Source: an uncultured Caulobacteraceae bacterium
GTDB taxonomy: Bacteria; Pseudomonadota; Alphaproteobacteria; Caulobacterales; Caulobacteraceae
DNA length: 36,471 bases
Direction of reading: 5' to 3'
Assembly: GCA_903923135.1 (NCBI GenBank)
Contig: CAIXWN010000093.1
Span: 1 to 36,471, forward strand
Of the stretch, positions 3-20,744 are shown piece by piece. Every line of letters starts with the position of its first letter. Position 1 is the first letter of the stretch. The position numbers were made by a program, and so were the translations under genes. The notes below the pieces were generated by a model, which was given only the letters and a program-made list of their open reading frames with translations, was not told the origin of the DNA and ran no database searches.

Positions 3-1178
3 CAGGGCCTGACCATCGGCATCTGTTCGGGCGGACACAGCTGGGCGCAGAATCACATTCGCGACGGCGGCATGCTGATCGATCTCTCGCGGCTCGACAG
101 CATTGTGATCGATCCTGCGCAGCGCACGGCAACAATCGGCCCCGGCTGTCTGGCCGGCGATCTTAATGCCGCGCTGGTGAAGCACAAACTCTTCTTCCCG
201 GTGGCGCACGCCTATACAGTCGGCATGGGCGGGTTCCTGCTGCAGGGCGGCTTTGGCTGGAACAGCCGAGCCTCGGGGCTGGCATGCCAGAGCGTGATCG
301 GGATCGATGTCGTACTGGCCGATGGCACTCTGGTCCATGCCAGTGAAACCGAAAACCCCGAACTGCTCTGGGCGGCGCGCGGTTCCGGCCCCGGCTTTTT
401 TGGCGTGGTCGTGCGCTTTCACCTCAGACTTCAGCCGCGGCCCAAATTTGTCGGCATGAAGATCCAGGTCTTCCGCATCCGCCACCTCGAAGCCGTCATG
501 GCATGGGCGGATCAGGTCGGCCCTTCAGTCGCCCCCTTTGCTGAATTCCAGCTCGTCTTCGATCGCAAGGCCATGGGGATTTTCGCGCACGGCATCCAGG
601 TGTTGACACCGGTGCTCGCTGCTAGCTGGCGCGAGGCGCGCGCGGCCGTCGCGTTCATTGACAAGAGCCCGATCCGCAAGCTTGCGAGCTTTACCCTTCC
701 GCTGCTGCCGGTCTCGCTGGGCATGATGATGAAAGGCGGTGAACGCACCCTTTTCCTGCCGAACACCCGCTGGACGGCAGACAGCATGTGGATGAACGCG
801 CCGATCGATCCACTGCTGCCGGCCTTGCGGCGTATCGCCGACACCCAGCCGACCGCTCCCAGCCATGCGCTGTGGCTCAACTGGAACGGCCCGGCGACGC
901 GGCCCGACATGGCATTTTCGCTCGAGGCGCGGACCTATCTCGCGCTGTATGGCGGGCTGCGCGGAAGTACCTTGGCCAACCCCGCTGATGAAAGCTGGGC
1001 GACGGACCACATGCGCGCGCTGCAGGAGCACAGTGTCGGCATCCAGTTGGCCGATGAAAACCTTGGGCGCCGACCGGCACCGTTCATGGCGCCCGCCAAT
1101 CTCGCCCGGCTCGACGCACTGCGCTTGCGATACGACCCGGACGGCCTGTTCAATCCTTACATGGGGCGCGTGGCATGA
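3..1178 (+). CDS. FAD-linked oxidase, BBE-like (5' truncated by window edge)
   Basis: The reading frame is already open at the left edge, so the N-terminus is missing. The first visible residues include SGGHSW (near base 26-46), the signature of the PCMH-type FAD-binding domain; in berberine-bridge-enzyme relatives the His of this motif often carries the 8-alpha-histidyl FAD link. A glycine-rich stretch (GMGGFLLQGGFGW) and WAARGSGPGFFGVV follow, both usual for the family. The C-terminus ends YDPDGLFNP, the BBE-domain tail that places a substrate-side loop over the flavin. Such enzymes oxidise alcohols, sugars or phenolic substrates with O2 or another acceptor. Its stop overlaps the start of the PhlG-like hydrolase (ATGA), so the two are probably co-translated and act on related compounds. 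Substrate unknown; family call is firm. Confidence 0.88.
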   Translation, partial: QGLTIGICSGGHSWAQNHIRDGGMLIDLSRLDSIVIDPAQRTATIGPGCLAGDLNAALVKHKLFFPVAHAYTVGMGGFLLQGGFGWNSRASGLACQSVIGIDVVLADGTLVHASETENPELLWAARGSGPGFFGVVVRFHLRLQPRPKFVGMKIQVFRIRHLEAVMAWADQVGPSVAPFAEFQLVFDRKAMGIFAHGIQVLTPVLAASWREARAAVAFIDKSPIRKLASFTLPLLPVSLGMMMKGGERTLFLPNTRWTADSMWMNAPIDPLLPALRRIADTQPTAPSHALWLNWNGPATRPDMAFSLEARTYLALYGGLRGSTLANPADESWATDHMRALQEHSVGIQLADENLGRRPAPFMAPANLARLDALRLRYDPDGLFNPYMGRVA

Positions 1179-2023
1179 AGAGCAGCAAAGCCATTGCCGG
1201 GCGCTATCTGGGATATCACGCCGCCGATGCGGCCCAGCCGTTTGCGCGCTTCTTTAATCCCCGGATGGCTCCGGTGGCACCTCATGTCGGTGCGGCGCTC
1301 GACCGGGGCGGCGTGCCGGCACCGCTCCTGCCGGGGTTTGAGGATGCATCGGAAAATCTGTTCGGCGGTACAGCGGTGCTGGAGGATGGCTTTGTCCTCA
1401 CGCAGGACGGCGGAATGCGCGTCAGCGTGCGTACAGAAATGCCCGGCGTTACCCCCGCCATGGTCGACTGGTGGTTTGGGTGGCACGGCGATACCCCGGC
1501 CAAATACAAGCTCTGGCATCCGCAGGCGCATGTCCATGTCGGGTGGCGCGAGACGCCGCCGGCAGGCACTAGCGGCCGCGCGCTCTACATCGGCCAGACC
1601 TCGATCGTTGACGAATACATCGGCAGCACTCTGATCCGCGGCGCGATCCGCTTTGTGCCGCCCGCGTCGCTGGGTTTTACTGACCGCAGTCTGGATGACG
1701 ATTCCCGGGCCACCATCGTCTGCGCCCGCATCGGGCTTGGGGATGCGCCGATCGACATCGGCTATCTGGTCCATCATGTCCGCGCAGTAGCGGGGGGCAG
1801 CGAAATGCGCTCTCGCTTCTGGATGGGTGGTCGGCACGTCGGCGGGCGCAATCTCATTGGCAGCCTAGCGGCACCGATTGCAAAGTTGGTGCAGCGCCTC
1901 GGCGAGGGCGACGCAAGAGCGTTGCTGGTCCACTGTGCCGAAGAAATGCCGCACCTAGCAGGGTTTCTGCCCGCGCTGCATGCCGAGTTTGCTGGCAGCA
2001 GCAACGCCTTTGCGACCCAATAG
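1175..2023 (+). CDS. PhlG-like (DAPG/phloretin) C-C bond hydrolase family protein
   Basis: A 282-residue protein resembling 2,4-diacetylphloroglucinol hydrolase PhlG and phloretin hydrolase, zinc enzymes that cleave the acyl-aryl C-C bond of acylphloroglucinols. Seen in the sequence: WWFGWH (99-104) followed by YKLWHPQAHVHVGW (111-124), an acidic segment with E147, and near the C-terminus LVHCAEEMPHLAGFLP with H253 and E257. The H-x3-E spacing matches H270/E274 of Pseudomonas PhlG, while H115 or H119 and E147 fit the other two zinc ligands. No signal peptide, so cytoplasmic. It begins inside the stop of the upstream FAD oxidase, implying a two-gene module for an aromatic polyketide or a similar ketone. 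The family is recognised by motif memory; the substrate is not deducible. Confidence 0.78.
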   Translation: MKSSKAIAGRYLGYHAADAAQPFARFFNPRMAPVAPHVGAALDRGGVPAPLLPGFEDASENLFGGTAVLEDGFVLTQDGGMRVSVRTEMPGVTPAMVDWWFGWHGDTPAKYKLWHPQAHVHVGWRETPPAGTSGRALYIGQTSIVDEYIGSTLIRGAIRFVPPASLGFTDRSLDDDSRATIVCARIGLGDAPIDIGYLVHHVRAVAGGSEMRSRFWMGGRHVGGRNLIGSLAAPIAKLVQRLGEGDARALLVHCAEEMPHLAGFLPALHAEFAGSSNAFATQ

Positions 2024-2045: not shown

Positions 2046-2306
2046 ATGGCGACCATCGGGTTGATAGCGGTTGTCTCGGCAGCGGGCTTCGTCGGGTCTA
2101 GACCGCAACCGGTGCGCGTTCCGCCGCAACCCGCCTCGACCTCACCCTTGCGCGCGACGATTGCTATCGCGCCGCCTGACCGGGCGCTCACGTTCGCCCG
2201 ATCTGGCCAACGGACCATAGCCGTCACCCGCTACCGAGAAGGCGTAGTGACCGGTATCGACCTGACACCGCTGCTCCGTCCTAGCGAAGATGCCATCGCG
2301 GCGTAA
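2046..2306 (+). pseudogene. Small exported protein, C-terminus cut by IS66 insertion
   Basis: An 86-residue reading frame begins with a hydrophobic leader (MATIGLIAVVSAAGFVG) and continues with a Pro-rich linker and a short domain containing RTIAVTRYREGVVTGIDL. An in-frame ATG also exists at 1980 but lies inside the upstream gene, so 2046 is preferred; no clear ribosome binding site is seen. The present stop TAA (2304-2306) is made by the left end of the IS66 element. Removing the element and one copy of the 8-bp target duplication restores a reading frame that continues YNRLG and then stops at 4748-4750. The insertion therefore removes only five residues and may leave the protein functional. 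I do not recognise the family. Confidence 0.5.
2295..2302. repeat. IS66 target-site duplication, left copy
   Basis: ATCGCGGC immediately before the element; the same eight bases follow the element at 4724-4731. Confidence 0.93.
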
Positions 2307-2312
2307 GCGTCG
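2303..2312 (+). repeat. IS66 left terminal inverted repeat
   Basis: GTAAGCGTCG, perfectly matched by the inverted copy at 4714-4723; similarity beyond these 10 bases is poor. Confidence 0.93.
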
Positions 2313-2377
2313 CTTCACCCCCACCTTTCTCGCTGCGCCGTGATCGCCGAGTCTGACCGGTCGGTTGGCTTGGTGAG

Positions 2378-2752
2378 GTGATGATGCCTGGTGACGATTT
2401 GCTGATGATGCCCGGCGCCCGCCGTGTCGAGGTGTTCACGGGGAAGGGCCGGCGTCGACGCTGGAGCGCTGAGGACAAGGCGCGGATTGTGGCGGAGAGC
2501 TACGCGACGTCGGTGGGCGAGGCCTCGGATCGCTATGGGGTCTGCAAGACGCAGCTGTTCACGTGGCGGCGGGACGCTCGTCGGCCGGCTGAGGGCGGCG
2601 TGACGTTCACGCCGGTGGTGCTGGAGGGTCAGGGCGCCGGCGAGGACGGGGTCATCGAGGTTGAGCTTGGAGCGGCGCGGGTTCGCATCGGTCGGTGCGC
2701 CGAGGTTGGCATGGCGCTGGCGGTGATCGGGGCGCTGCGGGGCCGGCGGTGA
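2378..2752 (+). CDS. tnpA: IS66 accessory protein TnpA (HTH)
   Basis: A 124-residue protein carrying a helix-turn-helix of the transposase_8/IS66 OrfA type: RRRRWSAEDKARIVAES, then ASDRYGVCKTQLFTWRRD. In IS66 elements this protein is needed with TnpB for full transposition and is thought to bind the element ends. The start is one of GTG 2378, ATG 2381 or ATG 2384, all directly behind a GGTGAGG stretch. The second half (EVELGAARVRIG) is the usual OrfA tail. Its stop overlaps the GTG start of tnpB (GTGA at 2749-2752), a translational coupling typical of the family. Intact. Confidence 0.9.
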   Translation: MMMPGDDLLMMPGARRVEVFTGKGRRRRWSAEDKARIVAESYATSVGEASDRYGVCKTQLFTWRRDARRPAEGGVTFTPVVLEGQGAGEDGVIEVELGAARVRIGRCAEVGMALAVIGALRGRR

Positions 2753-3099
2753 TCACGCCTGGGGCGCGGGTTCTGGTGGCGACCAGACCGGTGGACTTCA
2801 GGAAGGGCGCCGAAGGTCTGGCGGCGCTGGTGAAGGATCAGATGCGGCTGGAGCCGTTCTCGGGCGTGGTGTTCGTGTTCCGCGCCAAGCGAGCCGACCG
2901 GATCAAGCTGCTGTGGTGGGACGGCACGGGCGTGTGCCTGCTGGCCAAGCGGTTGGAGGACGGTCAGTTCCGCTGGCCCAAGGCGGAAGATGCGACGATG
3001 CGTTTGAGCGCGGCCCAGCTGTCCGCCCTGCTGGAAGGTCTGGACTGGCGGCGGGTTCACCAGAGCCGGCGAACGCGGGTTCCCGTGGCGGTGAACTGA
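2749..3099 (+). CDS. tnpB: IS66 accessory protein TnpB
   Basis: A 116-residue protein of the IS66 Orf2/TnpB family. The family core is plain: VLVATRPVDFRKGAEGLAAL, FVFRAKRADRIKLLWWDGTG, and RFRWPK-like QFRWPKAED near the C-terminus. The open frame extends upstream to an ATG at 2695, but the family begins close to ITPGARVL, so the GTG at 2749, overlapping the tnpA stop, is chosen. TnpB is required for IS66 transposition by an unclear mechanism. It is followed by a 72-bp gap to tnpC. Nothing suggests decay. Confidence 0.92.
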   Translation: MITPGARVLVATRPVDFRKGAEGLAALVKDQMRLEPFSGVVFVFRAKRADRIKLLWWDGTGVCLLAKRLEDGQFRWPKAEDATMRLSAAQLSALLEGLDWRRVHQSRRTRVPVAVN

Positions 3100-3171
3100 C
3101 CTGCGGCACGGTGACTCAGGGCGTTCGCGGGGGCGCCTCAAGCCGTTGTAAATGTGCTGTAATCCCGGCCG

Positions 3172-4692
3172 ATGACAGCTCCGGTCAGCGCCGTTCCCGA
3201 CGATGTCGAAGCCCTCAAGGCGACGCTGATCGCCGAACGCGCGGCCCACGCGGCCGAGCTGGAACGGCTTCGCCAGATCATCAAGGCGCTCCAGCGCCAC
3301 CGGTTCGGACGACGCGCCGAGACGCTGCCCGCCGACCAGCTGGAGCTGGCGCTCGAAGACGTCGAACAACTCAAGGCCGAAGGCGAAGCGCAGGTCGAGG
3401 CGACGAAGCCAGAGAAGAGGACCGAACGCGCCAAGGCGCGCCGGGCCAACCGGGGCGCGCTGCCGGCGCATCTGCCGCGGATCGAGACCATCGTCGATCT
3501 CGACGACACCACCTGCCCCTGCTGCCAGGGCCAACTTCACAGGATCGGCGAGGACGTCAGCGAGCGGCTGGATGTGATCCCGGCCCAGTTCCGCGTCCTG
3601 GTCACCCGCCGGCCGAAGTACGCCTGCCGGACCTGCGAGGAGGGCGTGGTCCAGGCCCCCGCGCCGGCCAGGCTGATCGAGGGCGGCCTGCCCACCGAGG
3701 CCCTGGTCGCCCATGTGCTCGTCGCCAAGTTCGCAGACCATTGTCCGCTCTATCGACAGGCCCAGATCTACGCCCGGCAGGGTGTTCTGTTGGATCGCTC
3801 GACGCTCGCCGACTGGGTCGGGCGGGCGGCGTTCCTGCTGCGGCCGGTGCGCGACCGGCTGCTGGAAAACCTCAAGGCCTCGTCCAGGCTGTTCGCCGAC
3901 GAGACCACCCTGCCGGTGCTCGATCCCGGACGGGGGCGTACCAAGACCGGACAGCTTTGGGCCTATGCGCGGGACGACAGGCCCTGGGGCGGACCCGATC
4001 CCCCCGCGGCGGTCTATGTCTACGCCACCGACCGAACGGGCAAACGGCCGATCGAACACCTCGCCGGGTTCAAGGGCGTGCTGCAGGTGGACGGCTATAG
4101 CGGTTATCGCCCGCTGGCCGAGAAGGGCGACGTCAAGCTCGCCTTCTGCTGGGCCCATGTCCGCCGCGCGTTCTACGAACTGGCCGTCGCGGGGCCCGCT
4201 CCTCTCGCCAGCGAGATGCTGGAGCGGATCAAGGCGCTCTACGCGATCGAGGCCCAACTGAGAGGGCTCCCGGCCGAACACCGCCGCGTTGCACGACTGG
4301 AACAAACCCGTCCTCTTCTGGCGGCCATGGAAACCTGGCTCAGAACGACCCTTCAGACCATCAGCCAGAAGCTCAAGCTGGCCGAGGCCATCCGCTACGC
4401 TCTGGCCCGCTGGGAGGGTCTCACCCGCTTCGTCGACGATGGGACCATCGAGATCGATTCCAACACCGTCGAACGCTCGATCCGGCCGATCACCCTGACC
4501 CGCAAGAACGCCCTCTTCGCCGGATCGGACGGCGGCGCCGAACACTGGGCCGTCGTCGGCTCGCTCATCGAGACCTGCAAGCTGAACAGCATCGACCCCG
4601 AGGCCTACCTCGCAGCGACGATCACGCGCGTTGTCCAGGGCCATCCGCAAAGCCGGATCGATGAACTTCTGCCCTGGGCCTACGCCGCCTGA
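3172..4692 (+). CDS. tnpC: IS66-family transposase TnpC (DDE)
   Basis: The 506-residue transposase catalyses DNA cleavage and strand transfer at the element ends. Order of parts: an N-terminal leucine-zipper-like coiled coil (about 8-50, AELERLRQIIKALQ) with the family motif HRFGRRAE; a zinc finger (about 105-150) with CPCC and CRTC cysteine pairs; then the DDE domain. The likely acidic triad is D243 (RLFADETTLPVLD), D307 (LQVDGYSGY) and E434 (NTVERSIRP). CWAHVRRAF and the C-terminal LIETCKLNSIDPEAYL are also diagnostic. Full length for the family and without frameshift, so probably active. Located near the right end of the element, 22 bp from the right inverted repeat. Confidence 0.96.
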   Translation: MTAPVSAVPDDVEALKATLIAERAAHAAELERLRQIIKALQRHRFGRRAETLPADQLELALEDVEQLKAEGEAQVEATKPEKRTERAKARRANRGALPAHLPRIETIVDLDDTTCPCCQGQLHRIGEDVSERLDVIPAQFRVLVTRRPKYACRTCEEGVVQAPAPARLIEGGLPTEALVAHVLVAKFADHCPLYRQAQIYARQGVLLDRSTLADWVGRAAFLLRPVRDRLLENLKASSRLFADETTLPVLDPGRGRTKTGQLWAYARDDRPWGGPDPPAAVYVYATDRTGKRPIEHLAGFKGVLQVDGYSGYRPLAEKGDVKLAFCWAHVRRAFYELAVAGPAPLASEMLERIKALYAIEAQLRGLPAEHRRVARLEQTRPLLAAMETWLRTTLQTISQKLKLAEAIRYALARWEGLTRFVDDGTIEIDSNTVERSIRPITLTRKNALFAGSDGGAEHWAVVGSLIETCKLNSIDPEAYLAATITRVVQGHPQSRIDELLPWAYAA

Positions 4693-4713
4693 GCAGGGCC
4701 CGTGGCCGGCAGA

Positions 4714-4723
4714 CGACGCTTAC
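4714..4723 (-). repeat. IS66 right terminal inverted repeat
   Basis: CGACGCTTAC, the exact reverse complement of the left end. Confidence 0.93.
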
Positions 4724-4731
4724 ATCGCGGC
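4724..4731. repeat. IS66 target-site duplication, right copy
   Basis: ATCGCGGC immediately after the right end of the element, identical to 2295-2302. Confidence 0.93.
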
Positions 4732-4903
4732 GTATAATCGCCTCGGATAACCGGCAGCTTTCGGCGTGATCCGACAGGCCGAGCGCTGGATCGAAACGGC
4801 GTATTGTGGTCGGCAGCCACCGTCGGCGCTGAACATCCGAATGGCCGATATCCCGGTTTCACCGCCTTGAAGCCGTCGTTCCGGATCGTCCCCACAAGCC
4901 GCC
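4732..4903. other. Gene-free stretch between IS66 and antitoxin gene
   Basis: 172 bp. The first 19 bases (4732-4750) are the displaced last codons of the gene cut by IS66. I see no convincing reading frame, RNA gene or terminator in the rest. Confidence 0.5.
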
Positions 4904-5221
4904 CTACGCCACCGCATTCAAGCCTTTGCGCTGAATGATCGAAAGCAACCTGAGCGCCGGCCCACCAGGCCTCTTCTTGCCTCGCTCCCAATCGGAAACC
5001 AGGTTCTTTGACACGTTGAGGTAGCGCGCGAACACGGGCTGTGAGACGTGCTGTGCCTCGCGGATTGCCTTGATCTCGTCAGGTAGAAGCGGCGTCGCTG
5101 GCGCCAGACATGCCTCGTCGAACTCGCGCAGGGTGCGCTTGTCGATAGCACCGCCTTCGCGAAGGCCTTCCATCATCTCGTGGACGGCGGCGAGCGCCTC
5201 GCTCTTATAGGTCCTGGGCAT
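4904..5221 (-). CDS. HigA-type antitoxin, Xre-family HTH
   Basis: A 105-residue protein with a single helix-turn-helix in its C-terminal half: LPDEIKAIREAQHVSQPVFARYL, then NVSKNLVSDWERGKKRPGG. Antitoxins of this class (COG2944-like) bind and neutralise a RelE/HigB toxin and repress their own promoter. The ATG at 5221 is preferred over an upstream TTG at 5227 because GAGGTG lies at suitable distance. The start falls inside the 3' end of the toxin gene (17-bp overlap), so toxin comes first and antitoxin second, as in higBA systems. Its position beside a broken integrase suggests it arrived with an integrative element. Function as antitoxin is inferred from family and arrangement. Confidence 0.85.
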   Translation of the reverse strand: MPRTYKSEALAAVHEMMEGLREGGAIDKRTLREFDEACLAPATPLLPDEIKAIREAQHVSQPVFARYLNVSKNLVSDWERGKKRPGGPALRLLSIIQRKGLNAVA

Positions 5222-5606
5222 CGGCAATCACCTCGAACAGTCTTTCCTCGCGCACTTCGTTATCGATCTGCGCCTGCGTCAGCGCGAGCACGATCTTGGC
5301 GGCCCGCTTGTAGGCCCTCAATTCATCCGCGCTGAGGTTGGCCTTGTCACTCTTGGCGAAGCCAAAGGCGAATATGGCCCGGTCCTCATGGCGGAAGAAA
5401 ACCAGCGTGCGATAGCCGCCAGACTTGCCTCCACCTTCGCGCGCGACGCGCTGCTTGATCAGGCCGCCGCCGAGATCGGCGTCGATCAAGCCGCGATTGG
5501 CTTGGTCGATGGCGGCAGCAAGCGTCGCGTCGCTGATCCCTTCCCGGATCGCAAACTTCGCGAACCAGCGGTTCTTGTAGATGCGGGTTCGGGGCTTACC
5601 GGTCAT
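5205..5606 (-). CDS. RelE/HigB-type toxin (DUF1044-like)
   Basis: A 133-residue basic protein of the RelE cytotoxic repressor group (COG4737-like). Characteristic stretches are RIYKNRWFAKFA, LGGGLIKQRVAREGGGKSGGYR and RAIFAFGFAKSDKANL. Members cleave mRNA in the ribosome and inhibit growth when their antitoxin is lost. The ATG at 5606 is chosen since AGGA lies nine bases upstream; an in-frame ATG at 5627 is possible but adds residues (MISGCLS) with no family likeness. The 3' end overlaps the antitoxin start. The 5' end overlaps the last codons of the integrase pseudogene on the same strand. Complete and apparently functional. Confidence 0.87.
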   Translation of the reverse strand: MTGKPRTRIYKNRWFAKFAIREGISDATLAAAIDQANRGLIDADLGGGLIKQRVAREGGGKSGGYRTLVFFRHEDRAIFAFGFAKSDKANLSADELRAYKRAAKIVLALTQAQIDNEVREERLFEVIADAQDL

Positions 5607-6088
5607 GGATAGGCATCCTGATATCACACATAGTGTTAGAGTTCAATAAAGGGGCTTCGCCCATTACATCGGCGATCAGGTCGCCGATCCGATTGGCTGC
5701 GTCGAGCACGTGACCGTCATCGAGGTGGGCGTAGCGCGAAGTGGTCTGCAACTTGGCATGGCCGAGCAGCTTGCCGATCATCGGCAAGGTTTCTGATCGC
5801 GCCGCCGCGTGGCTGGCGAAGCTGTGCCGCAAATCGTGGAGCCGGACACCGGGCAGATTGGCTTCGGCCCTGCCGGAAGATGTCAGGCAGGTCCTTGAAG
5901 ATGCGAGAGCGGTTGCCCTTGCGGGTCGACTGTTTCCAGTGCCGAGAATAGTCCGCCCAGAAACGCGGGGCGTAGTCGGCGAACAGTATGCCACCGGGGC
6001 GTTTTCCCTTTGCAGTCCCCTTCGGCGCAACGGGAAGCCCGTCGAGCGCAACCTCCGCGAGCTGCGCGCGCGCCTTCTCCGCGCGCAT
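5596..6088 (-). pseudogene. Tyrosine-recombinase integrase, internally deleted and frameshifted
   Basis: Two pieces of one integrase lie in different frames. The N-terminal piece (6088 down to about 5890) reads PVAPKGTAKGKRPGGI and FADYAPRFWADYSRHWKQST, the linker and core-binding (SAM-like) region. The C-terminal piece (about 5871 to 5596) reads VRLHDLRHSFASHAA, MIGKLLGHAKLQTTSRYAHL, which contains the second Arg of the catalytic set, the LLGH His and the nucleophile Tyr. The middle of the catalytic domain, including the first active-site Arg, is missing at the junction near 5872-5890, roughly 150 residues by family length. The N-terminal arm-binding domain is also absent, cut where the IS630 fragment begins. 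It cannot encode an active recombinase. Confidence 0.85.
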
Positions 6089-7849: not shown

Positions 7850-9778
7850 TCATGGGGCCGCCTGCGGTATAGCCAGAGCGCTGTCTTTGACGACCATCGG
7901 CAGTTGCGGCGGACGATAGGCCGCAAGATCCAGCCGCCACAGGGTTTCCCCATCCGCCGGTTCTCTGGCCGGCTCGAAACCGAGCGACTGGTAGTGACCG
8001 GACACCATTCGGTTCTTCGCCGACGGGATATAGCGCCCCGTCAGGCTGCGGGCGCCGTGAGCTGCGGCGGCTGCGGCCAGATGGGCCAGAACGGCTTCCT
8101 GAACGCGACGGCCCAGGACGCGGCAGCTCATCAGCCACGTATCGATTTCCCAGTCCTCCGTGCCTTTGTCGGCGATGACCACGCTGATGATGCCGTTGTC
8201 GCCGAAGCGGTCCGCCAGTCGGACCTGCACGACATGTCGCGTCGGATCGTGCGCTGCCGACTCGACCTCGGCTTCCGAATACCGCCGGGTGGTCAGATTG
8301 AACTGGTTTGACTTGTTGATGAGTTGCGACACACGGGCCCGCGAGATGGAGTCGACGAGGCTGATGATGCACACCATGTTGAGCGACGTGAGGTACGCCT
8401 CCAGATCGCCGCTCTCCGACAGCGCCTGCGTGCGAAGCGCGTTAGCCTGATACATGTCCGCGCGCGCGCGGTCTTCGGCCGAGAAGGTGACGGTCTCGAA
8501 GTAACCCGCCGCCATAAGTGCGCGTGGGAACAGGGCCGGATCGTCGGGAAGCTCGGGCACGCCGACCTGGGGCAGGGCCCTGCGAACCTGTAGACGCTCC
8601 GCCGGATTGTCATCGAGGAGCACGAGAGCGTCGACGCCGATGTTCAGGGTTTCGGCGATGACGCGCAGATTGGCGGCCTTGTCCGTCCAGTTCGCCTGGA
8701 ACACGGCGATGTGCTGTTCACGCAGCAGCATGTCCGGGTGTTCGCGGAAAGGCAGGCGAGCCGCGTCCTCCTCGTTCTTCGAACACACCGCCAGGACGAC
8801 ACCGCGGCCCCGCAGATCAAGGGCCATCTGCTGAATGGCAATGAAAGCCTCTGCGGAGGCGGAACCCTGGCCAATCCTGATCCCGGCCAAACCATCATCG
8901 CCGATAACGCCACCCCACAGGGTGTTGTCGAGGTCGAGAACCAGACATTTTCGGGTCCTGCCGCGTATCGCAGCGATGGTCCTGGCCACGATCTCCGCAT
9001 AAAGTGGTGTCATCCGTGGCGAGAAGGGGAGCTTCGACGCGTGCCAGTGCCCCGGATCGTGCCAGGCCTCCAGGCCCACCGTTGTCGCCAGCCGGGCGAT
9101 GTCCAGCAGAACAATGCCGCCGGCCGCTGCCCAATCGACGATTCGGCTGTTCAGCGCTTCCACCATAGCGAACGGTGACCCGGGGTGCAGCCGGTCGAAG
9201 CTGCCGAAGAGCCATTCCACCGGTGGAGGAAGCGTCTGCACGATGATCGCTGAGGCGATCGAAGGGCGCAGGCCGTCGACGATCATCTTCAACCTAGCGA
9301 AGGCGGATGAGACATTGCCTTCGGCCTGCTCATGGGAGACGGCCGCCTGATCCAGGCCGAGCATGCGAGCGTCGCCGGCCACAAGAACAAAGTCCAGCCC
9401 GGCCGTACGGATCACGCTGTTTTCGTCCACCGCTTCCTGGACAGCGCTGTTGTACCGTCCCTCGATCACCTCCAGGCACAGTCCGTGGCGCAAGCCGGAT
9501 CCGAGGATCGGCATGGCGCAAAGCGATAGCGTTCCGTCGCCCACCAGGCCGACCTTCGCGGTAGCGAAGCCGTCGATCCGGAGGTCAGAAGATCGAATCT
9601 GCCTGCTGACGGCGGCCAGCCGGTTGAGCTGGGTCTCATCAAGCGCCGTCGTCGCCAGGCTGAGCAGCCGCCCGGCGAACTCCGCGCCGACACCGTTCCG
9701 AACTTCCGCCTTCAGCCCGGCGATCTGGCTCCTGAAATCCTCAGGCGGTGGGGGCAGCCACTCCAAATTGCTAAACAT
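7850..9778 (-). CDS. FkbH-like HAD-IIIC phosphatase / glyceryl-ACP synthase
   Basis: 642 residues in three parts. The N-terminal region (1-265) is the degenerate SGNH-like domain of FkbH proteins; AWHDPGHWHASKLPFS (238-253) is its typical end and the GDSL serine appears lost (VGDGTLSL, 79-86). The HAD-IIIC domain (about 277-410) starts LVLDLDNTLWGG with catalytic D282 and D284, then CSKNEED and LLDDNPAERL. The C-terminal GNAT-like domain (about 425-620) contains LINKSNQFNLTTRRYSEAE and DRFGDNGIISVV. Characterised relatives take 1,3-bisphosphoglycerate, remove phosphate and load glyceryl on an acyl carrier protein (methoxymalonyl-ACP, tetronate pathways). It is the first gene of a minus-strand operon with SGNH and VOC proteins; a free ACP is encoded at 19482. 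Glyceryl as substrate is inferred. Confidence 0.9.
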   Translation of the reverse strand: MFSNLEWLPPPPEDFRSQIAGLKAEVRNGVGAEFAGRLLSLATTALDETQLNRLAAVSRQIRSSDLRIDGFATAKVGLVGDGTLSLCAMPILGSGLRHGLCLEVIEGRYNSAVQEAVDENSVIRTAGLDFVLVAGDARMLGLDQAAVSHEQAEGNVSSAFARLKMIVDGLRPSIASAIIVQTLPPPVEWLFGSFDRLHPGSPFAMVEALNSRIVDWAAAGGIVLLDIARLATTVGLEAWHDPGHWHASKLPFSPRMTPLYAEIVARTIAAIRGRTRKCLVLDLDNTLWGGVIGDDGLAGIRIGQGSASAEAFIAIQQMALDLRGRGVVLAVCSKNEEDAARLPFREHPDMLLREQHIAVFQANWTDKAANLRVIAETLNIGVDALVLLDDNPAERLQVRRALPQVGVPELPDDPALFPRALMAAGYFETVTFSAEDRARADMYQANALRTQALSESGDLEAYLTSLNMVCIISLVDSISRARVSQLINKSNQFNLTTRRYSEAEVESAAHDPTRHVVQVRLADRFGDNGIISVVIADKGTEDWEIDTWLMSCRVLGRRVQEAVLAHLAAAAAAHGARSLTGRYIPSAKNRMVSGHYQSLGFEPAREPADGETLWRLDLAAYRPPQLPMVVKDSALAIPQAAP

Positions 9779-10273
9779 CGTACTGTTCGCCTGACTGCCG
9801 ATCCGATCCTCGCGCCATGTAACGCGTCACCCGACGAGCCGATAACTCAAACGTCGATCTCAATGACGGATTTGGCGAGCGCCGTGAAAAGGCGCAGCGC
9901 TTAGGTATAAATCACCCCCAGGCGGCGCCGACTGGGAAAATCATCGATTTCTGTGCCGCACACCCACCCGCCTGACCGGCTCGACGGAGAATTCAGAAAT
10001 ATAACACTCACTCTTCGGCGCGTTCTAGCATCTCATCCTTGCCGGGTCGGGGGAAAGGTGCTTTTCCGGGCTGGATCTGTCGTGGTGTTCCGGTTGTCGC
10101 CGCTCGTCAGATCGTCGAGGTCCATGTGTTGGTTGAAGCGCCTTGAACGACATACTCATTCCGACGCGTGTACATAGCTTACGGCGCCGCGGGTTTCCAG
10201 CCCCCTACCGGGCCTCGAGCCTCAGTCTGGCGAACGGCGCCGGCAGCGGCCTCGCCTATGCGGGTCTTCGTCC
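9779..10273. promoter_or_regulatory. Gene-free divergent intergenic region
   Basis: 495 bp between the FkbH operon (minus) and the glycosyltransferase pair (plus), so both promoters should lie here. It has AT-richer patches than its surroundings, such as GGTATAAATC near 9904-9913 and GAAATATAACAC near 9996-10007, which could be -10 elements, but I find no -35 at proper spacing. The only sizeable frame (9953-10177) has no family features. No RNA gene is seen. Confidence 0.4.
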
Positions 10274-11182
10274 GTGATCGATGATTGCATCTCGGCGGCC
10301 GGGCGGCGGCCACTGGTGAGCGTGGTGATCCCCCACTACAGCGATCTCGAAGGCCTTGGTCTATGTCTGGACGCGCTGGCCCGGCAGACGTTTGATCGCG
10401 ATGGCTTTGAAGTCATTGTCTCCGACAATGGCTCACCTGAAGGCGAAGCGGCGGTCGCTGCGGTCATCGATGGTCGCGCCCGGCTGGTGGTTGTGGACGA
10501 ACGAGGGGCCGGCCCCGCGCGCAACGGCGGCGTCGCGGTTGCAACAGGCGAAATCCTGGCCTTCACCGACTCGGACTGCCGGCCGGAACCGGGCTGGCTT
10601 GCGGCCGGCGTTGAGGCTCTTTTGCAAAGCGATTTTGTCGGGGGACGCATGGTGGTGATCGTCGACGACGTCGCTCGTCCGACAGCGGCCGAAGCCTTTG
10701 AGTGTGTCTTCGCGTTCGCCAACGACACCTATGTACGGCGAAAGGGCTTTTCAGTAAGCGCAAACCTGTTCTGCGCAAAGGCGACCTTCGAAACGGTAGG
10801 TGGGTTCCGCGTCGGCCTGTCGGAAGACGTGGACTGGTGCCAACGCGCCTCTGCGGCCGGCTTCGAGATCGGCTACGCGCCCGGCGCGGTGGTCAGCCAT
10901 CCCGCGCGTAAAACTTGGCACGACCTCAAGAACAAGTGGCGCCGGATGAACGCCGAAACCTATGCACTGTGGGCAAGGCGCCCGGCGGGCCGATGGCTCT
11001 GGCTGATAAGAAGTCTCGGGTTGCCGCTGTCTGCCCTCGCGCATGCACCTCGCGTGCTGACGAGCCGGTCGCTGGCCGGACCCTCCCAAAGGTTCGCGGC
11101 GATGGGAATGCTTTTCCGCCTTCGCCTATGGCGTATGGGGGATGCGCTCAGCCTGTTCCTCGACGGTTGGCCCGACGCATGA
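10274..11182 (+). CDS. Family 2 glycosyltransferase
   Basis: A 302-residue GT-A-fold transferase that adds a sugar from a nucleotide donor to the growing repeat unit at the cytoplasmic membrane face. The N-terminus reads LVSVVIPHYSDLEGLGLCLDAL and VIVSDNGS, the nucleotide-binding start of GT2 enzymes. The metal-binding acidic motif is in LAFTDSDCRPEPGWL, and the acceptor-side LSEDVDWCQRASAAGFEIGYAP corresponds to the ED catalytic-base block. The C-terminal 60 residues contain a weak hydrophobic stretch. It starts with GTG at 10274; a downstream ATG at 10281 is out of frame. The stop overlaps the next glycosyltransferase start (ATGA). Donor and acceptor cannot be told. Confidence 0.9.
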   Translation: MIDDCISAAGRRPLVSVVIPHYSDLEGLGLCLDALARQTFDRDGFEVIVSDNGSPEGEAAVAAVIDGRARLVVVDERGAGPARNGGVAVATGEILAFTDSDCRPEPGWLAAGVEALLQSDFVGGRMVVIVDDVARPTAAEAFECVFAFANDTYVRRKGFSVSANLFCAKATFETVGGFRVGLSEDVDWCQRASAAGFEIGYAPGAVVSHPARKTWHDLKNKWRRMNAETYALWARRPAGRWLWLIRSLGLPLSALAHAPRVLTSRSLAGPSQRFAAMGMLFRLRLWRMGDALSLFLDGWPDA

Positions 11183-12105
11183 GCCTGCATGTCACGGTGG
11201 CTATCGTCGGCTTTCGCAGCGCGTCGGACATCGCGCGTTGTCTGGAGGCACTCGCAGCGTCGACGTATGCCGATTTCGCCGTGATGATCTGCGAGAATGG
11301 CGGGGCGGCTGCGTATGACGATCTTGTGGCGACCATCCCGAAGGCCTTGCGTGCTGGCCAGGCCGTCCGGACGGTTCAATCCGAGGGCAACCTGGGCTTC
11401 GCCGCGGGGGTGAACCGGTGTCTCGCCGAGACCGCGACCTCCGATGCGTGGTGGGTGCTCAATCCGGATACAGAGCCTTGTGCGTTTGCCCTGGAGGCGC
11501 TCGTGACGCGTCTGGTGGCGGGCGACTGCGACGCCGTCGGATCGACCCTCGAGCTGCCCGGCGGTCGCGTGCAATCCCACGGGGGTCGGTGGCGGCCCTG
11601 GCTGGCCCGGGCGGAGTCCATCGGACTGGGAACGGCGGTCGCCGACGCCGTGGACGCGGCCGCGGTTGAACGCACACAATCCTACCTGAACGGCGCATCA
11701 ATGCTCATCAGCCGGCGTTTCCTGTCGTCGGTCGGGCCCATGCGCGAAGACTATTTCCTCTATTGCGAGGAGGTCGCATGGTGCCTGCGGGCGGCAAGAA
11801 TGGGGTTGCGTCTTGGCTTCGCCCCGGGCTCCAGGATTCTGCACAGACAGGGTGCGACCACTGGGGCCGGGCAGGCTGAGGCGGCCCGCCCGCGCCTCCC
11901 GGTCTATCTTGGGGAACGCAACAAGATGCTCCTGACCCGGGACTTCTTCCCGGCGCGCCTGCCCGTCGCCGCAATGGCAGCGCTCGCCCTTCTCAGCATC
12001 CGCTATTTGCGGCGCGGGGCCTGGCGGCAATGGGGGTACGGCATTGCCGGTTGGTGGGCGGGTCTGCGCGATGAACGCGGGCCGCCAATTTGGCTGGAGC
12101 CGTAG
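11179..12105 (+). CDS. Family 2 glycosyltransferase, rhamnosyltransferase-like
   Basis: 308 residues, beginning VTVAIVGFRSASDIARCLEAL. The NLGFAAGVNRCL block followed by WWVLNPDTEP is typical of the WbbL/RfbN-like rhamnosyltransferase branch of GT2, where the NPDT acidic residues bind the metal-nucleotide. YFLYCEEVAWCLRAARMGLRLGF contains the catalytic E-E-x-x-W-x-x-R pattern. The frame is open from 10915, but the ATG at 11179 overlapping the upstream stop begins exactly at the GT2 fold. The end has an amphipathic stretch (LPVAAMAALALLSIRYL) that may attach to the membrane. Cotranscribed with the preceding transferase. Rhamnose as donor is a family tendency, not proven. Confidence 0.9.
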   Translation: MSLHVTVAIVGFRSASDIARCLEALAASTYADFAVMICENGGAAAYDDLVATIPKALRAGQAVRTVQSEGNLGFAAGVNRCLAETATSDAWWVLNPDTEPCAFALEALVTRLVAGDCDAVGSTLELPGGRVQSHGGRWRPWLARAESIGLGTAVADAVDAAAVERTQSYLNGASMLISRRFLSSVGPMREDYFLYCEEVAWCLRAARMGLRLGFAPGSRILHRQGATTGAGQAEAARPRLPVYLGERNKMLLTRDFFPARLPVAAMAALALLSIRYLRRGAWRQWGYGIAGWWAGLRDERGPPIWLEP

Positions 12106-12168
12106 CCGATCGACCCAAAATCGTTTCGCCTTGGGGAAGCTCTTTCGGGTGGGTGAACTCCTTATGGG

Positions 12169-13110
12169 TCAGACCGGCCGGCCGAGCGACGACAACCGTC
12201 GGGCCACGCGCTCGCTCAGGGCTGGCCGCCTCTGGGGCCGTGGCAGGGCGGCGCCGATCATCGGACCGTAGAGAGCATGGGCGTCGGCAATGGCCAGGGC
12301 CAGGGTCTCAAGGTCGGCGACGGAGGGTTCGGCTGCGCCTGGCCGGGTGGCGGCCCGGAGCCAATCGTAAATGGTCCGCACCCAGGCAGGGAGGCTCGAA
12401 TCGTCCGCCGTCGCGTGGTTGCGCATCTCCGGGCGCCACTGGGTCCGCGCCAGTTCCAGCCCGACGGCCACCTTGGCGGCGTCGAAGCAGCCGAGACCAT
12501 CCGCCAACCGCCGCGCGGCGGCGATCGGATCAGCCAGAAAGCCGTCGTAAGAGACGAACAGGCGCCGTAGGCCTCTCGTCTGGCGTTCGGCCATGAGGTT
12601 GCAGGTAAGCCACAGCGCGAGGCCGTGCTCGCGGATCGCCTCGTTGCGCCTTGTCAGGGACAGGGCGACCTCTGCAGGGTGGCGATAGGCGAACACAGCT
12701 AGGGGCAGGGCTTCGAAATCCGCCAGGACCCGGAGCCACAGCGGCATCAGAACGCAAATTCGCGGATCCTTGATGACGAACAGCCTCTGGTCTGAAAAAT
12801 CGCGCTGAAGGATCGATAGAAGCTCTTCGCGGCATACAGCCGCGGCGTTTGTTTCGAACACTTCTGGTGCGAGGATCCGCGGATCATTCCACGCCGAGCC
12901 GACGGCCTCCAGAAAACGGTTGTGGACGGCGACGATATCCGCCGATTCCCAGAAGCCCTCGGGATTATCCTTCAACGGAGGGATAAGGTTGCCTGGAAGA
13001 GCCGCGCCCATGCCGCTGATCGTCCGAGTGACTGCCGAGGTTCCGGACCGGTGCATGCCCAAAACCAGGATGCAAACCCTATGGGTCGGAGAATCGCAGG
13101 GCTTGCTCAT
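12169..13110 (-). CDS. Sulfotransferase family protein
   Basis: A 313-residue cytoplasmic sulfotransferase. The 5'-phosphosulfate loop is LVLGMHRSGTSAVTR (16-30), followed by NPEGFWESADIVAVHN, a segment common in bacterial polysaccharide sulfotransferases. LFVIKDPRICVLMPLW and VFAYRHPAEVALSLTRRNE cover the 3'-phosphate-binding strand-loop, with the expected Arg and Ser. The protein would move sulfate from PAPS onto a hydroxyl of the glycan; no PAPS synthesis genes are in the window. It starts with ATG 13110. It faces the glycosyltransferase pair convergently across a 63-bp gap. The substrate is inferred from its place within the polysaccharide locus; transfer to a lipid or small molecule is possible. 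Confidence 0.87.
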   Translation of the reverse strand: MSKPCDSPTHRVCILVLGMHRSGTSAVTRTISGMGAALPGNLIPPLKDNPEGFWESADIVAVHNRFLEAVGSAWNDPRILAPEVFETNAAAVCREELLSILQRDFSDQRLFVIKDPRICVLMPLWLRVLADFEALPLAVFAYRHPAEVALSLTRRNEAIREHGLALWLTCNLMAERQTRGLRRLFVSYDGFLADPIAAARRLADGLGCFDAAKVAVGLELARTQWRPEMRNHATADDSSLPAWVRTIYDWLRAATRPGAAEPSVADLETLALAIADAHALYGPMIGAALPRPQRRPALSERVARRLSSLGRPV

Positions 13111-13462
13111 CCGCCCGTCGCCCCCAGTTCGGAACGGCTTGACCTCGCGCCGTCGAGGAAACCCGCTTCGAGATCGCGATGCTGCGCAGCGTCGCCGCCG
13201 ACGGGCGTCACCTTCCCGCGCCGAACTTCCGCCATATCAGCCACTCCGCCGGGAGATTTCATATGCGCATGGGGATAGGACGTCGTCCCTGAGTGGGCAA
13301 CACCCGACGAAGTCCGCGCGGCCGTCATCGTCTCATTCGGTTAGTCGGGATCCTCAGTGGAGCCGGTCGAACTCTGCAAACGCCGTCGAAGCCATATGAT
13401 GCAAGCTGACCTGCTATGGCCCGGTTCGCCCGGCCCCTGGCGGTCGCGTCTTCCCGCAGGGC
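13111..13462. other. Gene-poor stretch upstream of sulfotransferase
   Basis: 352 bp. A minus-strand frame (13107-13328, or 13107-13262 from an inner ATG) ends in an ATGA overlap with the sulfotransferase start and could be a short leader peptide, but its residues show no recognisable family and I do not call it a gene. No RNA gene or clear terminator is seen. Confidence 0.35.
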
Positions 13463-13846
13463 TCAGGCGACCCGTTGGGTGATTGTCGCAGGATTGCCTA
13501 CCGCCAAAGAGTTCGCCGGCATGTCGCGGGTCACCAAAGCGCCTGGCGCGACCAAGCAGCCTTCGCCAAGGGTGAGGCCGGGCATGATGATCGACCGGGG
13601 CCCAAGCACGCAACGCGCGCCGATCCGGGTATGGAGATAGAGCCCGCGCGAGAAATCGTGGGTCAGAACCACAGCCTGCTCACATATGCGAACGTCCGGA
13701 CCGATGTGGACCCCGCGGGGGTAGGTTCGATCGATGAGCGCGCTCGGTTCAATCCATGCCGTGCGGTCGATATCCATTCCCCAGACGACGGTCTGAAAGA
13801 GCCTTTTCAGCGCCGCCTTCACTCTGGCCGCCATCGGCGTCTGCAT
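13463..13846 (-). CDS. WcaF-like hexapeptide-repeat acyltransferase
   Basis: A 127-residue left-handed beta-helix acyltransferase. Hexapeptide turns run through the protein: TAWIEPSALIDRT, GVHIGPDVRICEQAVVLTHD, ARCVLGPRSIIMPGLTLGEGCLVAPGALVTRDMPANSLAVGNPA. The HDF motif holds the likely catalytic His, and the ending VGNPA with a following basic residue is the usual CoA-binding end. It resembles colanic-acid WcaF acetyltransferases, though about 50 residues shorter at the N-terminus. A TTG at 13858 and ATGs at 13846 and 13834 are all possible starts; 13846 is used. It probably O-acetylates a sugar of the repeat unit. It is divergent from the second acyltransferase, 73 bp away. Confidence 0.82.
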   Translation of the reverse strand: MQTPMAARVKAALKRLFQTVVWGMDIDRTAWIEPSALIDRTYPRGVHIGPDVRICEQAVVLTHDFSRGLYLHTRIGARCVLGPRSIIMPGLTLGEGCLVAPGALVTRDMPANSLAVGNPATITQRVA

Positions 13847-13919
13847 GCTAGCTTTCAACCCCTATTCTCCCGAACCCGCGCGGCGGCGTCTAGCATGGAA
13901 CGGGTGCGGAGCGCGCCGG

Positions 13920-14360
13920 ATGCCTCTCAGATCGCTTAATCAATTTCGACGTCTGCGCCAGCGTCTCATGCGATTGCGTACTCACTGGCTTCGATTCCGT
14001 GGGGTCGTTGCGCCTCTTGACATTGAACCCTCGTTCTCCAGTCGGATCGTTGCGTCCCGAAAAGGGGGTGTCACCGTCGGTTCTCAGACACTCATCGCGT
14101 TCAAGACCCTGATCTATGACCGCGACCATCTGACCGGCGAATTTCGACCGGTTCGCATCGGCGCCCGCTGCTTCATCGGTGGTGGCAGCATGATCCTGCC
14201 GGGCGTCTCCATCGGCGACGATTGCATCGTCGGCGCCGGGGCCGTGGTCAGTGACGATGTGCCATCCCGGTCGATCGTCGGTGGCAATCCCGCGCGCATC
14301 CTGAAAAGCAATATCGAGGTGGGCCCGTTCGGCCGGTTGCGTTCCGCCGACCAACCCTGA
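13920..14360 (+). CDS. Hexapeptide-repeat acyltransferase
   Basis: A 146-residue left-handed beta-helix protein. The basic N-terminal helix (RRLRQRLMRLRTHWLRFRG) is followed by repeats: GGVTVGSQTLIAFKTLIYDRDH, RIGARCFIGGGSMILPGVSIGDDCIVGAGAVVSDDVPSRSIVGGNPARIL. DRDH carries the candidate catalytic His, and GGNPARIL is the standard end of the CoA site. It belongs to the Maa/LacA/WcaF superfamily and should acetylate a glycan hydroxyl in the cytoplasm. The open frame begins at 13845, but the ATG at 13920 fits the family length and leaves a small divergent promoter region toward the other acyltransferase. Two such enzymes next to each other suggest acetylation at two positions. Confidence 0.8.
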   Translation: MPLRSLNQFRRLRQRLMRLRTHWLRFRGVVAPLDIEPSFSSRIVASRKGGVTVGSQTLIAFKTLIYDRDHLTGEFRPVRIGARCFIGGGSMILPGVSIGDDCIVGAGAVVSDDVPSRSIVGGNPARILKSNIEVGPFGRLRSADQP

Positions 14361-14457
14361 TCTGTATCGCGCCGATATCGCAGTCCTCAATGCCCGCTCC
14401 CATCGGGGCGACGCTCAGCTCAGCCGCTGCAAGCTGTAAGCTCTCAATAGGCTTTCC

Positions 14458-14580
14458 GCCATCAACCGCTTCGTCGCCGAGACCAACGACGATCCAAGGC
14501 CCTTTACCTGGACCGCCGATCCAGACAAAATCATCGCCGCCGTCAGGCGTGGGCACCAAACGTTAGATTCGATCCACTAG
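14458..14580 (+). pseudogene. IS630-family transposase, 3' remnant
   Basis: Read on the plus strand, 14458-14580 gives AINRFVAETNDDPRPFTW, then TADPDKIIAAVRRGHQTLDS, then IH and stop. This is the C-terminus of IS630-type transposases (consensus NRF-AE-N-PKPFKWTADPD-I-AAV-RGHQ-LDSIH). Upstream, the frame is closed by a TAA near 14430 and similarity fades, so only about 40 residues remain. Its stop TAG overlaps the wzy stop on the other strand within CTAG at 14577-14580. This subtype differs from the fragment at 6089-6298, so two elements have been lost from the region. Confidence 0.8.
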
Positions 14581-16217: not shown

Positions 16218-16311
16218 CGACTAAGGCTCCGGATCGATCTGCGGGAAACGCAGCGATCACTGAGGTCATCTACAGGCAATGGTGGTCTATCGTCACCCGA
16301 AGAGTCCCTGA

Positions 16312-19346: not shown

Positions 19347-19481
19347 ACTCCCCGGTTCGACGCACGCGGGATCCCCGGATTGGGGTCTGGAAAACCGCCG
19401 GGCTATCGGCGATAAGCCCCCTGCCCATGCGGCCGCGAGACGCGTCCGACATCACAGTCAAATTCAACACAGGCGACGTCC

Positions 19482-19724: not shown

Positions 19725-19735
19725 GGTTGTCGACG

Positions 19736-20733: not shown

Positions 20734-20744
20734 AAATCGACTAG

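What the first reader, a model, noticed from the sequence alone, without database searches (positions are those of the whole stretch)
3..2023. BBE-like flavin oxidase coupled to a PhlG-like hydrolase
An ATGA overlap joins an FAD oxidase with SGGHSW and a hydrolase keeping the H-x3-E zinc motif of PhlG. PhlG relatives are few; pairing with a flavoprotein oxidase suggests an oxidation followed by C-C cleavage for an acylphloroglucinol or another bulky aryl ketone.
Basis: partly seen in the sequence, partly recalled or inferred. Interest (0 to 1): 0.5.

Follow-up and report, generated by a model that had tools for sequence, protein, structure and literature searches.

The report
Paired flavin oxidase and zinc hydrolase
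Two overlapping bacterial genes, a flavin oxidase and a zinc enzyme that probably clips side chains off phenol rings, travel together across distant bacteria and look like a small self-regulated kit for breaking down resorcinol-like compounds whose exact substrate is unknown.

Summary
Window 3-1178 encodes a flavin oxidase (PF01565), cut by the contig edge; by ATGA it overlaps a PF18089 (PhlG-type) hydrolase at 1175-2023 with all four zinc ligands. The pairing is not chance: 78 of the 80 loci kept from a named-genome scan have both genes adjacent, as do 95 of 136 loci overall; on a thinned tree the paired rows fall in one clade, apart from PhlG and phloretin hydrolase. Named carriers span five phyla, two only as metagenome bins. 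The proteins co-diverge (r=0.85). In many Alphaproteobacteria a TetR precedes the pair whose nearest solved relative is RolR, the resorcinol sensor; some have a fumarylacetoacetate-hydrolase-type gene after it, here broken by IS66. Two PhlG substrate residues are replaced, so DAPG is an unlikely substrate. Best reading: a self-contained oxidase plus zinc C-C hydrolase acting on an acyl/alkyl resorcinol-type phenol; the chemistry is inferred. Known families, a distinct paired subfamily. M. tuberculosis Rv1774-Rv1775 is probably the same pair (order recalled). No held open-licence paper found treats the pair.

The parts
3..1178 (+). Flavin oxidase, VAO/PCMH type, nearest to EncM; 5' end cut by the contig edge
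   Evidence: PF01565 E 2.3e-24; EncM best solved relative (for the complete relative L008)
36..38 (+). His codon of SGGHSW, expected 8-alpha-histidyl FAD link
   Evidence: H in 32 of 33 thinned relatives with a letter there
1175..1178 (+). ATGA overlap of oxidase stop and hydrolase start
   Evidence: sequence; 84 of 95 pairs overlap by 4 or 1 nt
1175..2023 (+). PhlG-type zinc C-C hydrolase, 282 aa
   Evidence: PF18089 E 6.4e-51; model pLDDT 94.1 matches 5xey/5xe5/3hwp at TMq 0.74-0.78
1529..1531 (+). zinc ligand H119 (PhlG H129)
   Evidence: 41 of 41 in clade
1613..1615 (+). zinc ligand E147 (PhlG E160)
   Evidence: 41 of 41 in clade
1931..1933 (+). zinc ligand H253 (PhlG H270)
   Evidence: 40 of 40 with a letter
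1943..1945 (+). zinc ligand E257 (PhlG E274)
   Evidence: 40 of 40 with a letter
2046..2302 (+). 5' remnant of the fourth operon gene, fumarylacetoacetate-hydrolase family
   Evidence: 58% identical to the L003 relative over its residues 4-99; only match in this genome at E <= 0.001
2295..2302 (+). left copy of the 8-bp direct repeat (target duplication)
2303..4723 (+). IS66-family insertion sequence, ends GTAAGCGTCG / CGACGCTTAC
   Evidence: NF033517 transposase E 2.3e-141; ends and direct repeat
3172..4692 (+). IS66 transposase
   Evidence: PF03050 E 1.3e-103
4724..4731 (+). right copy of the 8-bp direct repeat
4732..4748 (+). last codons of the interrupted gene before its similarity to relatives ends

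Best explanation
The pair is a locally regulated two-enzyme module. The flavin oxidase uses O2 to take two electrons from a resorcinol- or phloroglucinol-type phenol, most likely at the side-chain carbon next to the ring, giving or unmasking an aryl ketone with a neighbouring hydroxyl. The zinc hydrolase then adds a metal-bound water to that ketone and releases the free phenol and a carboxylic acid, as PhlG does with DAPG. In Alphaproteobacteria a RolR-like TetR protein senses the phenol and controls the genes. Shown here: conserved pairing, co-divergence, zinc site, folds, RolR-like regulator in relatives. Inferred: substrate class, order of steps, O2 use, regulation. The role is more likely inactivation or side-chain removal than use of the ring for growth.
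For: Pairing: 78 of the 80 kept loci; 95 of 136 loci in all; after thinning, the paired hydrolases fall in one clade (99/95; 37 of its 41 rows paired), with 6 label changes against 25.7 when shuffled; co-divergence r=0.846 over 35 pairs, 0 of 2000 permutations as high; order swapped in 5 of 95. Hydrolase: four zinc ligands and PhlG Tyr121 kept in every clade row with a letter, though this is true of the family at large; PhlG fold. Oxidase: model of relative L008 matches EncM at Z 42.5, SorD with sorbicillin at 38.9; Val in 33 of 33 at the place that I match to the oxygen gatekeeper by the His-Cys-gatekeeper spacing given for Tcz9 and Clz9 (58 and 3 residues). Regulator: nearest solved relative 3aqs/3aqt, E 1.7e-18, next best 8e-5, which is RolR; the resorcinol-contacting Asp149 is kept in 34 of 34.
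Against: No substrate or activity was tested. 4 of 41 clade rows have no partner next to them and their genomes hold no close one (best 103 bits against 662), so the hydrolase can work alone or those pairs decayed. Of RolR's four polar residues only Asp149 is kept throughout; Arg145 in 16 of 34, Asp94 in 1 of 35, Arg148 in 0 of 34; the RolR paper reports Asp149 as identical in all its homologues, so it is weak evidence of ligand. 48 of 95 pairs have an IclR regulator instead and 12 of 95, the window among them, have neither within 600 bases. PF04444 (intradiol dioxygenases) is in 2 of 17 hydrolase carriers and 3 of 17 non-carriers, not in this genome: no sign of ring cleavage by that route. 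The oxidase's fold neighbours also include 6-hydroxynicotine oxidase (Z 37.5) and sugar oxidases (Z about 36-37), so fold says little about substrate.
Confidence: 0.5

Rival explanations
1. Hydrolysis comes first: the zinc enzyme cleaves an acylphenol already present and the flavin oxidase then oxidises the freed phenol or another product.
For: PhlG-type enzymes need no prior oxidation (recalled); gene order is swapped in 5 of 95 pairs, so order gives no direction.
Against: Near solved oxidases (EncM, SorD, Tcz9) act on large substituted aromatics rather than small free phenols (recalled; for Tcz9).
Confidence: 0.2
2. The pair acts on a non-phenolic substrate, for example a steroid ring or another cyclic diketone, the hydrolase using the same metal chemistry.
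For: PMC8562490 suggests cholesterol ring species as plausible substrates for Rv1775 (passages); PhlG Asn132 is replaced in the clade.
Against: PhlG Tyr121 is kept in 41 of 41; RolR-like regulator in 35 of 95 pairs; carriers include Planctomycetota and Bacteroidota bins, with no link to steroid use known to me.
Confidence: 0.15
3. The two enzymes are tailoring enzymes of a biosynthetic pathway.
For: EncM, SorD, McrA and Tcz9, near in fold or sequence, are biosynthetic (recalled).
Against: No neighbour beyond regulators recurs in more than 9 of 95 pairs for the families I counted (FAA hydrolase 8, sulfatase 9, GST-like 9); no polyketide synthase family was reported for 31 neighbour proteins of paired loci that I picked for scanning (one).
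Confidence: 0.08
4. The hydrolase is a true DAPG or phloretin hydrolase that happens to sit beside an oxidase.
For: Same Pfam family and zinc site; best structure match is phloretin hydrolase.
Against: 88 bits against the PhlG equivalog cut-off of 600; references in a separate supported clade; Asn132 and Tyr229 replaced.
Confidence: 0.07

Closest known systems
PhlG, 2,4-diacetylphloroglucinol hydrolase of Pseudomonas fluorescens (PDB 3hwp)
   Same: Fold, four zinc ligands, Tyr121; phlG lies between phlF and phlH (abstract in listing); PhlF as a TetR repressor is recalled
   Different: 26% identity in the fold alignment; Asn132 and Tyr229 not kept; separate clade; no flavin oxidase partner in the phl cluster (recalled)
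Phloretin hydrolase of Mycobacterium abscessus (PDB 5xe5, 5xey)
   Same: Best structure and sequence match, zinc ligands
   Different: 28-31% identity; has Tyr at the Tyr229 place; separate clade; its nearest row on the tree, L156, has no oxidase beside it
Rv1774 and Rv1775 of Mycobacterium tuberculosis
   Same: Rv1775 proposed as a PhlG-like C-C hydrolase (PMC8562490, passages); Rv1774 listed as probable oxidoreductase (PMC8157059, passage); order IclR-oxidase-hydrolase is recalled and matches L039, L046 and M. riyadhense L218
   Different: Sequences not fetched or compared here; the passages seen treat the two genes apart
EncM, flavin enzyme of enterocin biosynthesis
   Same: Nearest solved relative of the oxidase over its whole length; single covalent His link expected, as in EncM
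   Different: 26-27% identity, measured on the relative L008; Thr139 of EncM is Val in 33 of 33
RolR, resorcinol repressor of Corynebacterium glutamicum (PDB 3aqs, 3aqt)
   Same: Nearest solved relative of the module's TetR (L008), about 30% identity; Asp149 kept
   Different: Asp94 and Arg148 not kept; Leu111 and Leu114 mostly Thr, Phe172 mostly Ala or Ser: a different, perhaps roomier pocket

Membership tests
PF18089 DAPG hydrolase family | Pfam gathering score | tested here: met
   173.5 bits against 22.7
PF18089 DAPG hydrolase family | Four zinc ligands H129, E160, H270, E274 of PhlG (numbers recalled, positions fitted) | tested here: met
   H119, E147, H253, E257
PF18089 DAPG hydrolase family | PhlG fold | tested here: met
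   TMq 0.74-0.78 to 5xey, 5xe5, 3hwp
PhlG (DAPG hydrolase proper) | NCBIfam equivalog NF047887 cut-off | tested here: not met
   88.3 bits against 600
PhlG (DAPG hydrolase proper) | Substrate residues Tyr121, Asn132, Tyr229 (recalled) | tested here: not met
   Tyr121 kept; Asn132 place is Val (or a gap), Tyr229 is Phe
Phloretin hydrolase | Grouping with the characterised enzyme 5xe5 | tested here: not met
   separate supported clades
PhlG or phloretin hydrolase | Hydrolysis of DAPG or phloretin | not testable with these tools
   needs assay
BBE-like flavin oxidases | FAD_binding_4 domain and VAO fold | tested here: met
   model of the relative L008, Z 42.5 to EncM
BBE-like flavin oxidases | Bicovalent FAD (His and 6-S-Cys); the paper counts members that lost one link, such as EncM | tested here: not met
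   His kept; Cys place (58 residues after His, as in Tcz9 and Clz9) is Ala in the window, Cys in 21 of 33 and Ala in 12 of 33 relatives
BBE-like flavin oxidases | Y/FxN motif near the C-terminus | tested here: not met
   what I take as EncM's F-M-N aligns with L-A-D by MAFFT or D-E-N by phmmer; the aromatic residue is absent either way, the Asn may be kept
RolR-type resorcinol repressor | Asp94-Arg145-Arg148-Asp149 ligand motif | tested here: not met
   only Asp149 kept in all 34 with a letter; this genome's own TetR is cut before it
IS66 family | IS66 transposase, inverted ends and 8-bp target duplication (the latter recalled as typical) | tested here: met

The most novel reading that the evidence does not exclude
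A widespread two-enzyme route, so far undescribed as a unit in the papers I could search, that removes carbon side chains from resorcinol-type compounds without CoA: the oxidase turns an alkyl or hydroxyalkyl side chain into an aryl ketone with O2 and the zinc hydrolase clips it off, leaving free resorcinol and a carboxylic acid. The tuberculosis gene pair Rv1774-Rv1775 would be a member, which would give two poorly understood genes one testable function.
Probability: 0.2. Interest if true: 0.7.

Novelty: new variant of a known kind. Interest (0 to 1): 0.45.

Why it matters
Hydrolytic cleavage of a ring-to-acyl carbon bond is rare, with few characterised enzymes (three PF18089-type sequences, of two enzymes, matched in the PDB copy). 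A distinct hydrolase subfamily that is nearly always next to one kind of flavin oxidase (37 of 41 thinned rows), in several phyla, says that the true substrate probably needs or yields an oxidation step, which narrows the search for it. The RolR-like regulator suggests which compounds to try first. If right, it would also tie together gene pairs annotated separately, as 'FAD-binding oxidoreductase' and 'hypothetical protein' in the one annotated mycobacterial plasmid that I looked at.

Tried and rejected
Downstream ring cleavage: PF04444 (intradiol dioxygenases) in 17 hydrolase carriers (16 with the pair; G427 lacks the oxidase beside it) and 17 non-carriers: 2 and 3 hits, none in this genome; it rang in 2 of 14 control genomes. 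The non-carriers are all relatives of the window's genome, so the groups are not matched. Other ring-cleavage routes not tested.

More catabolic genes to the left: the TetR piece at the end of contig C143 marks it as the probable left neighbour. Ten C143 proteins scanned: TetR, S-adenosylmethionine synthetase, glycosyltransferase, UDP-glucose-type dehydrogenase, nucleotidyltransferase/epimerase, NAD(P)HX repair enzyme, histidine phosphatase, thiolase-like, PII, glutamine synthetase. No aromatic catabolism recognised; other C143 frames were not scanned.

Sulfatase and GST-like neighbours: each in 9 of 95 loci within 4 kb; seen as local, not as part of the module.

True DAPG/phloretin hydrolase: set aside on clade, score and pocket residues. 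Flavin-N5-oxide oxygenase like EncM: thought unlikely because of Val at the T139 position (role of T139 recalled), not tested. Tcz9 and Clz9 are not among the 50 entries shown, though Tcz9 comes right after EncM by sequence.

Phages: no match to the hydrolase. Plasmids: 24 records matched; only M. riyadhense (48%) was opened, with IclR-oxidase-hydrolase; the other 23 were not examined.

Papers: searches. No held paper has two of Rv1773c, Rv1774, Rv1775, Rv1776c; no title or abstract start listed suggested the oxidase-PhlG pairing. Only open-licence papers are held, so this is not proof of absence. Passages were seen of PMC8562490, PMC7062750, PMC11925245, PMC8157059, PMC1884158, PMC12632287 (also its section 5) and PMC3086911; the rest only as listings.

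Rows dropped or not fetched: 4 of 140 loci (L173, L202, L203, L204; weak partial hits) before the tree; tree on 76 of 138 rows after thinning at 82% identity. Of the 33 genomes, G1002 and G934 were not fetched, nor were second hits such as those in G944, G968 and G262. The 80 loci are the best 80 of 200 relatives found. The TetR table is 28 cluster members plus 7 that I added by position. Some locus titles are metagenome bins and may be misassigned. L170 has a TetR beside the pair that the count missed, so 35 of 95 is a lower bound.
Full report
What is there. The window is G000:C93:1-36471. ORF 3-1178 (+) runs off its left end; it is a flavin oxidase (PF01565, E 2.3e-24). Its stop overlaps the start of ORF 1175-2023 (+) by ATGA, and that ORF is a PF18089 hydrolase (E 6.4e-51). 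Both look to be under purifying selection: pN/pS against L008 is 0.11 and 0.15. The gene after them (from 2046) is the start of a fumarylacetoacetate-hydrolase family gene; L003 has it complete (PF01557 E 3.3e-19). Here it is interrupted at 2302/2303 by an IS66-family element (2303-4723) with matching ends and an 8-bp direct repeat, and its similarity to the relative ends a few codons after the element. No other match to it at E <= 0.001 was found in this genome (98% complete).

The operon to the left. In most alphaproteobacterial relatives a TetR gene comes first. A search of this genome with the L008 TetR finds 97 matching residues at 78% identity at the very end of contig C143. So TetR, oxidase, hydrolase and the broken fourth gene probably stood in a row, with a gap between C143 and C93; the join is inferred. 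Ten proteins scanned on C143 are that TetR, S-adenosylmethionine synthetase, sugar-nucleotide and glycosyltransferase genes, a thiolase-like gene, PII, glutamine synthetase and two others.

The pair is conserved. A scan of named genomes gave 200 relatives, the best 80 kept. In 78 of the 80 the oxidase lies beside the hydrolase; the exceptions are L037 and L067. To avoid close relatives only, I searched PF18089 in the class (9 of 385 genomes), the class of a Mycobacterium (16 of 394), the phylum of a Polyangium (33 of 282) and the phylum of a Saprospiraceae bin (2 of 296); each count includes the carrier used as centre. I fetched the surroundings of nearly all of these (gaps are listed under Tried and rejected). 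Of 140 loci, 4 with weak partial hits were dropped; of the 136 left, 90 have the oxidase first, 5 the hydrolase first, 41 no oxidase. On a tree of 76 thinned rows the paired ones lie in one clade (99/95) of 41 rows, 37 paired; PhlG and phloretin hydrolase lie in another (99/92). The label 'no oxidase' needs 6 changes against 25.7 in shuffles. Swapped order occurs in L095 (a genome of the window's own genus), L111 (same class), L044 and L172 (the Saprospiraceae bin and a genome of its phylum) and L157. Of 95 pairs, 84 overlap by 4 or 1 nt, with a start-picking rule that favours overlaps. Distances within the oxidases and within the hydrolases correlate at 0.846 over 35 pairs, with 0 of 2000 permutations as high. 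The carriers named include Pseudomonadota, Actinomycetota and Myxococcota isolates and Planctomycetota and Bacteroidota bins. The four clade members without a neighbour oxidase have no close one in their genomes (best 103 bits against 662). The gene is patchy: 3 of 40 genomes of the window's relatives, own included, have a match.

The hydrolase. The four zinc ligands of PhlG and Tyr121 are kept in every clade row with a letter, and also in nearly every unpaired row; Asn132 is Ala (26) or Val (15) in the clade; Tyr229 is Phe in 40 of 40 with a letter, but also in 32 of 33 unpaired rows, so it is PhlG and phloretin hydrolase that differ there. The roles of these PhlG residues are recalled from He et al. 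2010, which was not held. A model from 37 sequences has mean pLDDT 94.1 and matches 5xey, 5xe5 and 3hwp at TMq 0.74-0.78; the next hits shown are much weaker, at TMq under 0.4. So the metal chemistry should be that of PhlG and the pocket different.

The oxidase. The model is of the complete relative L008. It is nearest to EncM (entry 6fyd, Z 42.5, rmsd 2.4 A over 427), then McrA (39.9) and SorD (39.1), with 6-hydroxynicotine oxidase and sugar oxidases at about 36-37.5. By sequence the next solved relative after EncM is 9p1o/9p1r, which is Tcz9, an enzyme that can process cannabigerolic acid (PMC12632287, passages and section 5). The histidine that links FAD is kept in 32 of 33. The paper puts the second, cysteine link 58 residues after the histidine in Tcz9 and Clz9 and the gatekeeper 3 further on; at these places this family has Ala (12 of 33, the window among them) or Cys (21 of 33), and Val (33 of 33). 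So single and double flavin links seem to occur within one paired family, and Val at the gatekeeper favours reaction with O2. Near the C-terminus the family has an almost invariant Q-L-A-D-E stretch where EncM reads N-F-M-N-P; two alignments place it differently, but the aromatic residue of the Y/FxN motif is absent in both.

The regulator. A RolR-like TetR lies within 600 bases of 35 of 95 pairs (a lower bound), an IclR regulator of 48 of 95, neither in 12 of 95, the window included because its contig starts inside the oxidase; 0 of 41 unpaired loci have the RolR-like TetR within 1.5 kb, though some have other TetR genes. The nearest solved relative of the L008 TetR is 3aqs/3aqt (E 1.7e-18, the next 8e-5), the resorcinol repressor RolR (PMC3086911, passages). 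Of RolR's polar ligand residues Asp149 is kept in 34 of 34, Arg145 in 16 of 34, Arg148 in 0 of 34, Asp94 in 1 of 35; Phe107 and Leu142 in 30 of 34 each. The paper reports Asp149 as identical in all RolR homologues, so this supports a resorcinol-like ligand only in a general way; the changed residues suggest a larger one.

Meaning. Hydrolase, regulator and, more weakly, oxidase each point to a polyhydroxyphenol with a carbon side chain. The simplest joint mechanism is oxidation next to the ring followed by zinc-dependent removal of the acyl group. This was not tested. Carriers do not show the intradiol ring-cleavage domain more often than others (2 of 17 against 3 of 17, groups not matched), and the surroundings vary, so I favour inactivation or side-chain removal over growth on the ring.

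Known or new. Both protein families are known. Rv1775 of M. tuberculosis was proposed as a PhlG-like C-C hydrolase in PMC8562490 (passages); the passages seen do not mention the neighbouring oxidase. Rv1774 appears in other papers as a probable oxidoreductase and among proteins similar to a plant cytokinin dehydrogenase (passages). That these two are the same pair rests on recalled gene order, matched by mycobacterial loci here (IclR, oxidase, hydrolase, TetR and P450 in L046; annotated IclR, FAD-binding oxidoreductase, hypothetical protein in M. riyadhense). I found no paper on the pair as a unit in the held library. I file it as a new variant of a known kind.

Noticed in passing
window 4904-5627 (-): Two small overlapping genes just right of the IS66 element: a RelE-type toxin (PF06296, E 2.2e-44) and a helix-turn-helix protein (PF01381), a likely toxin-antitoxin pair.
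   Followed up: partly
window 7850-22307: A long stretch that reads like a polysaccharide region: FkbH-like protein, glycosyltransferase, weak sulfotransferase, O-antigen ligase, polysaccharide exporter and MBOAT acyltransferase among the proteins scanned.
   Followed up: partly
window 26955-31246: A PutA-like proline/aldehyde dehydrogenase overlapped by 4 bases by a DAO-family FAD oxidoreductase gene.
   Followed up: partly
L167, L168, L170, L171 (genomes G747 and G691): Two diverged copies of the oxidase-hydrolase pair in each of two genomes, which are also the only 2 of 17 carriers tested with an intradiol dioxygenase domain.
   Followed up: partly
L009 920-3726, L007 238-1853 and similar loci: Sulfatase, GST-like and formylglycine-generating-enzyme genes near the pair in some Sphingomonadales, a possible hint at sulfated phenols.
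   Followed up: partly
oxidase alignment: Within one paired family the flavin-linking cysteine place is Cys in 21 of 33 and Ala in 12 of 33, so single and double flavin links seem to interchange in otherwise similar enzymes.
   Followed up: partly
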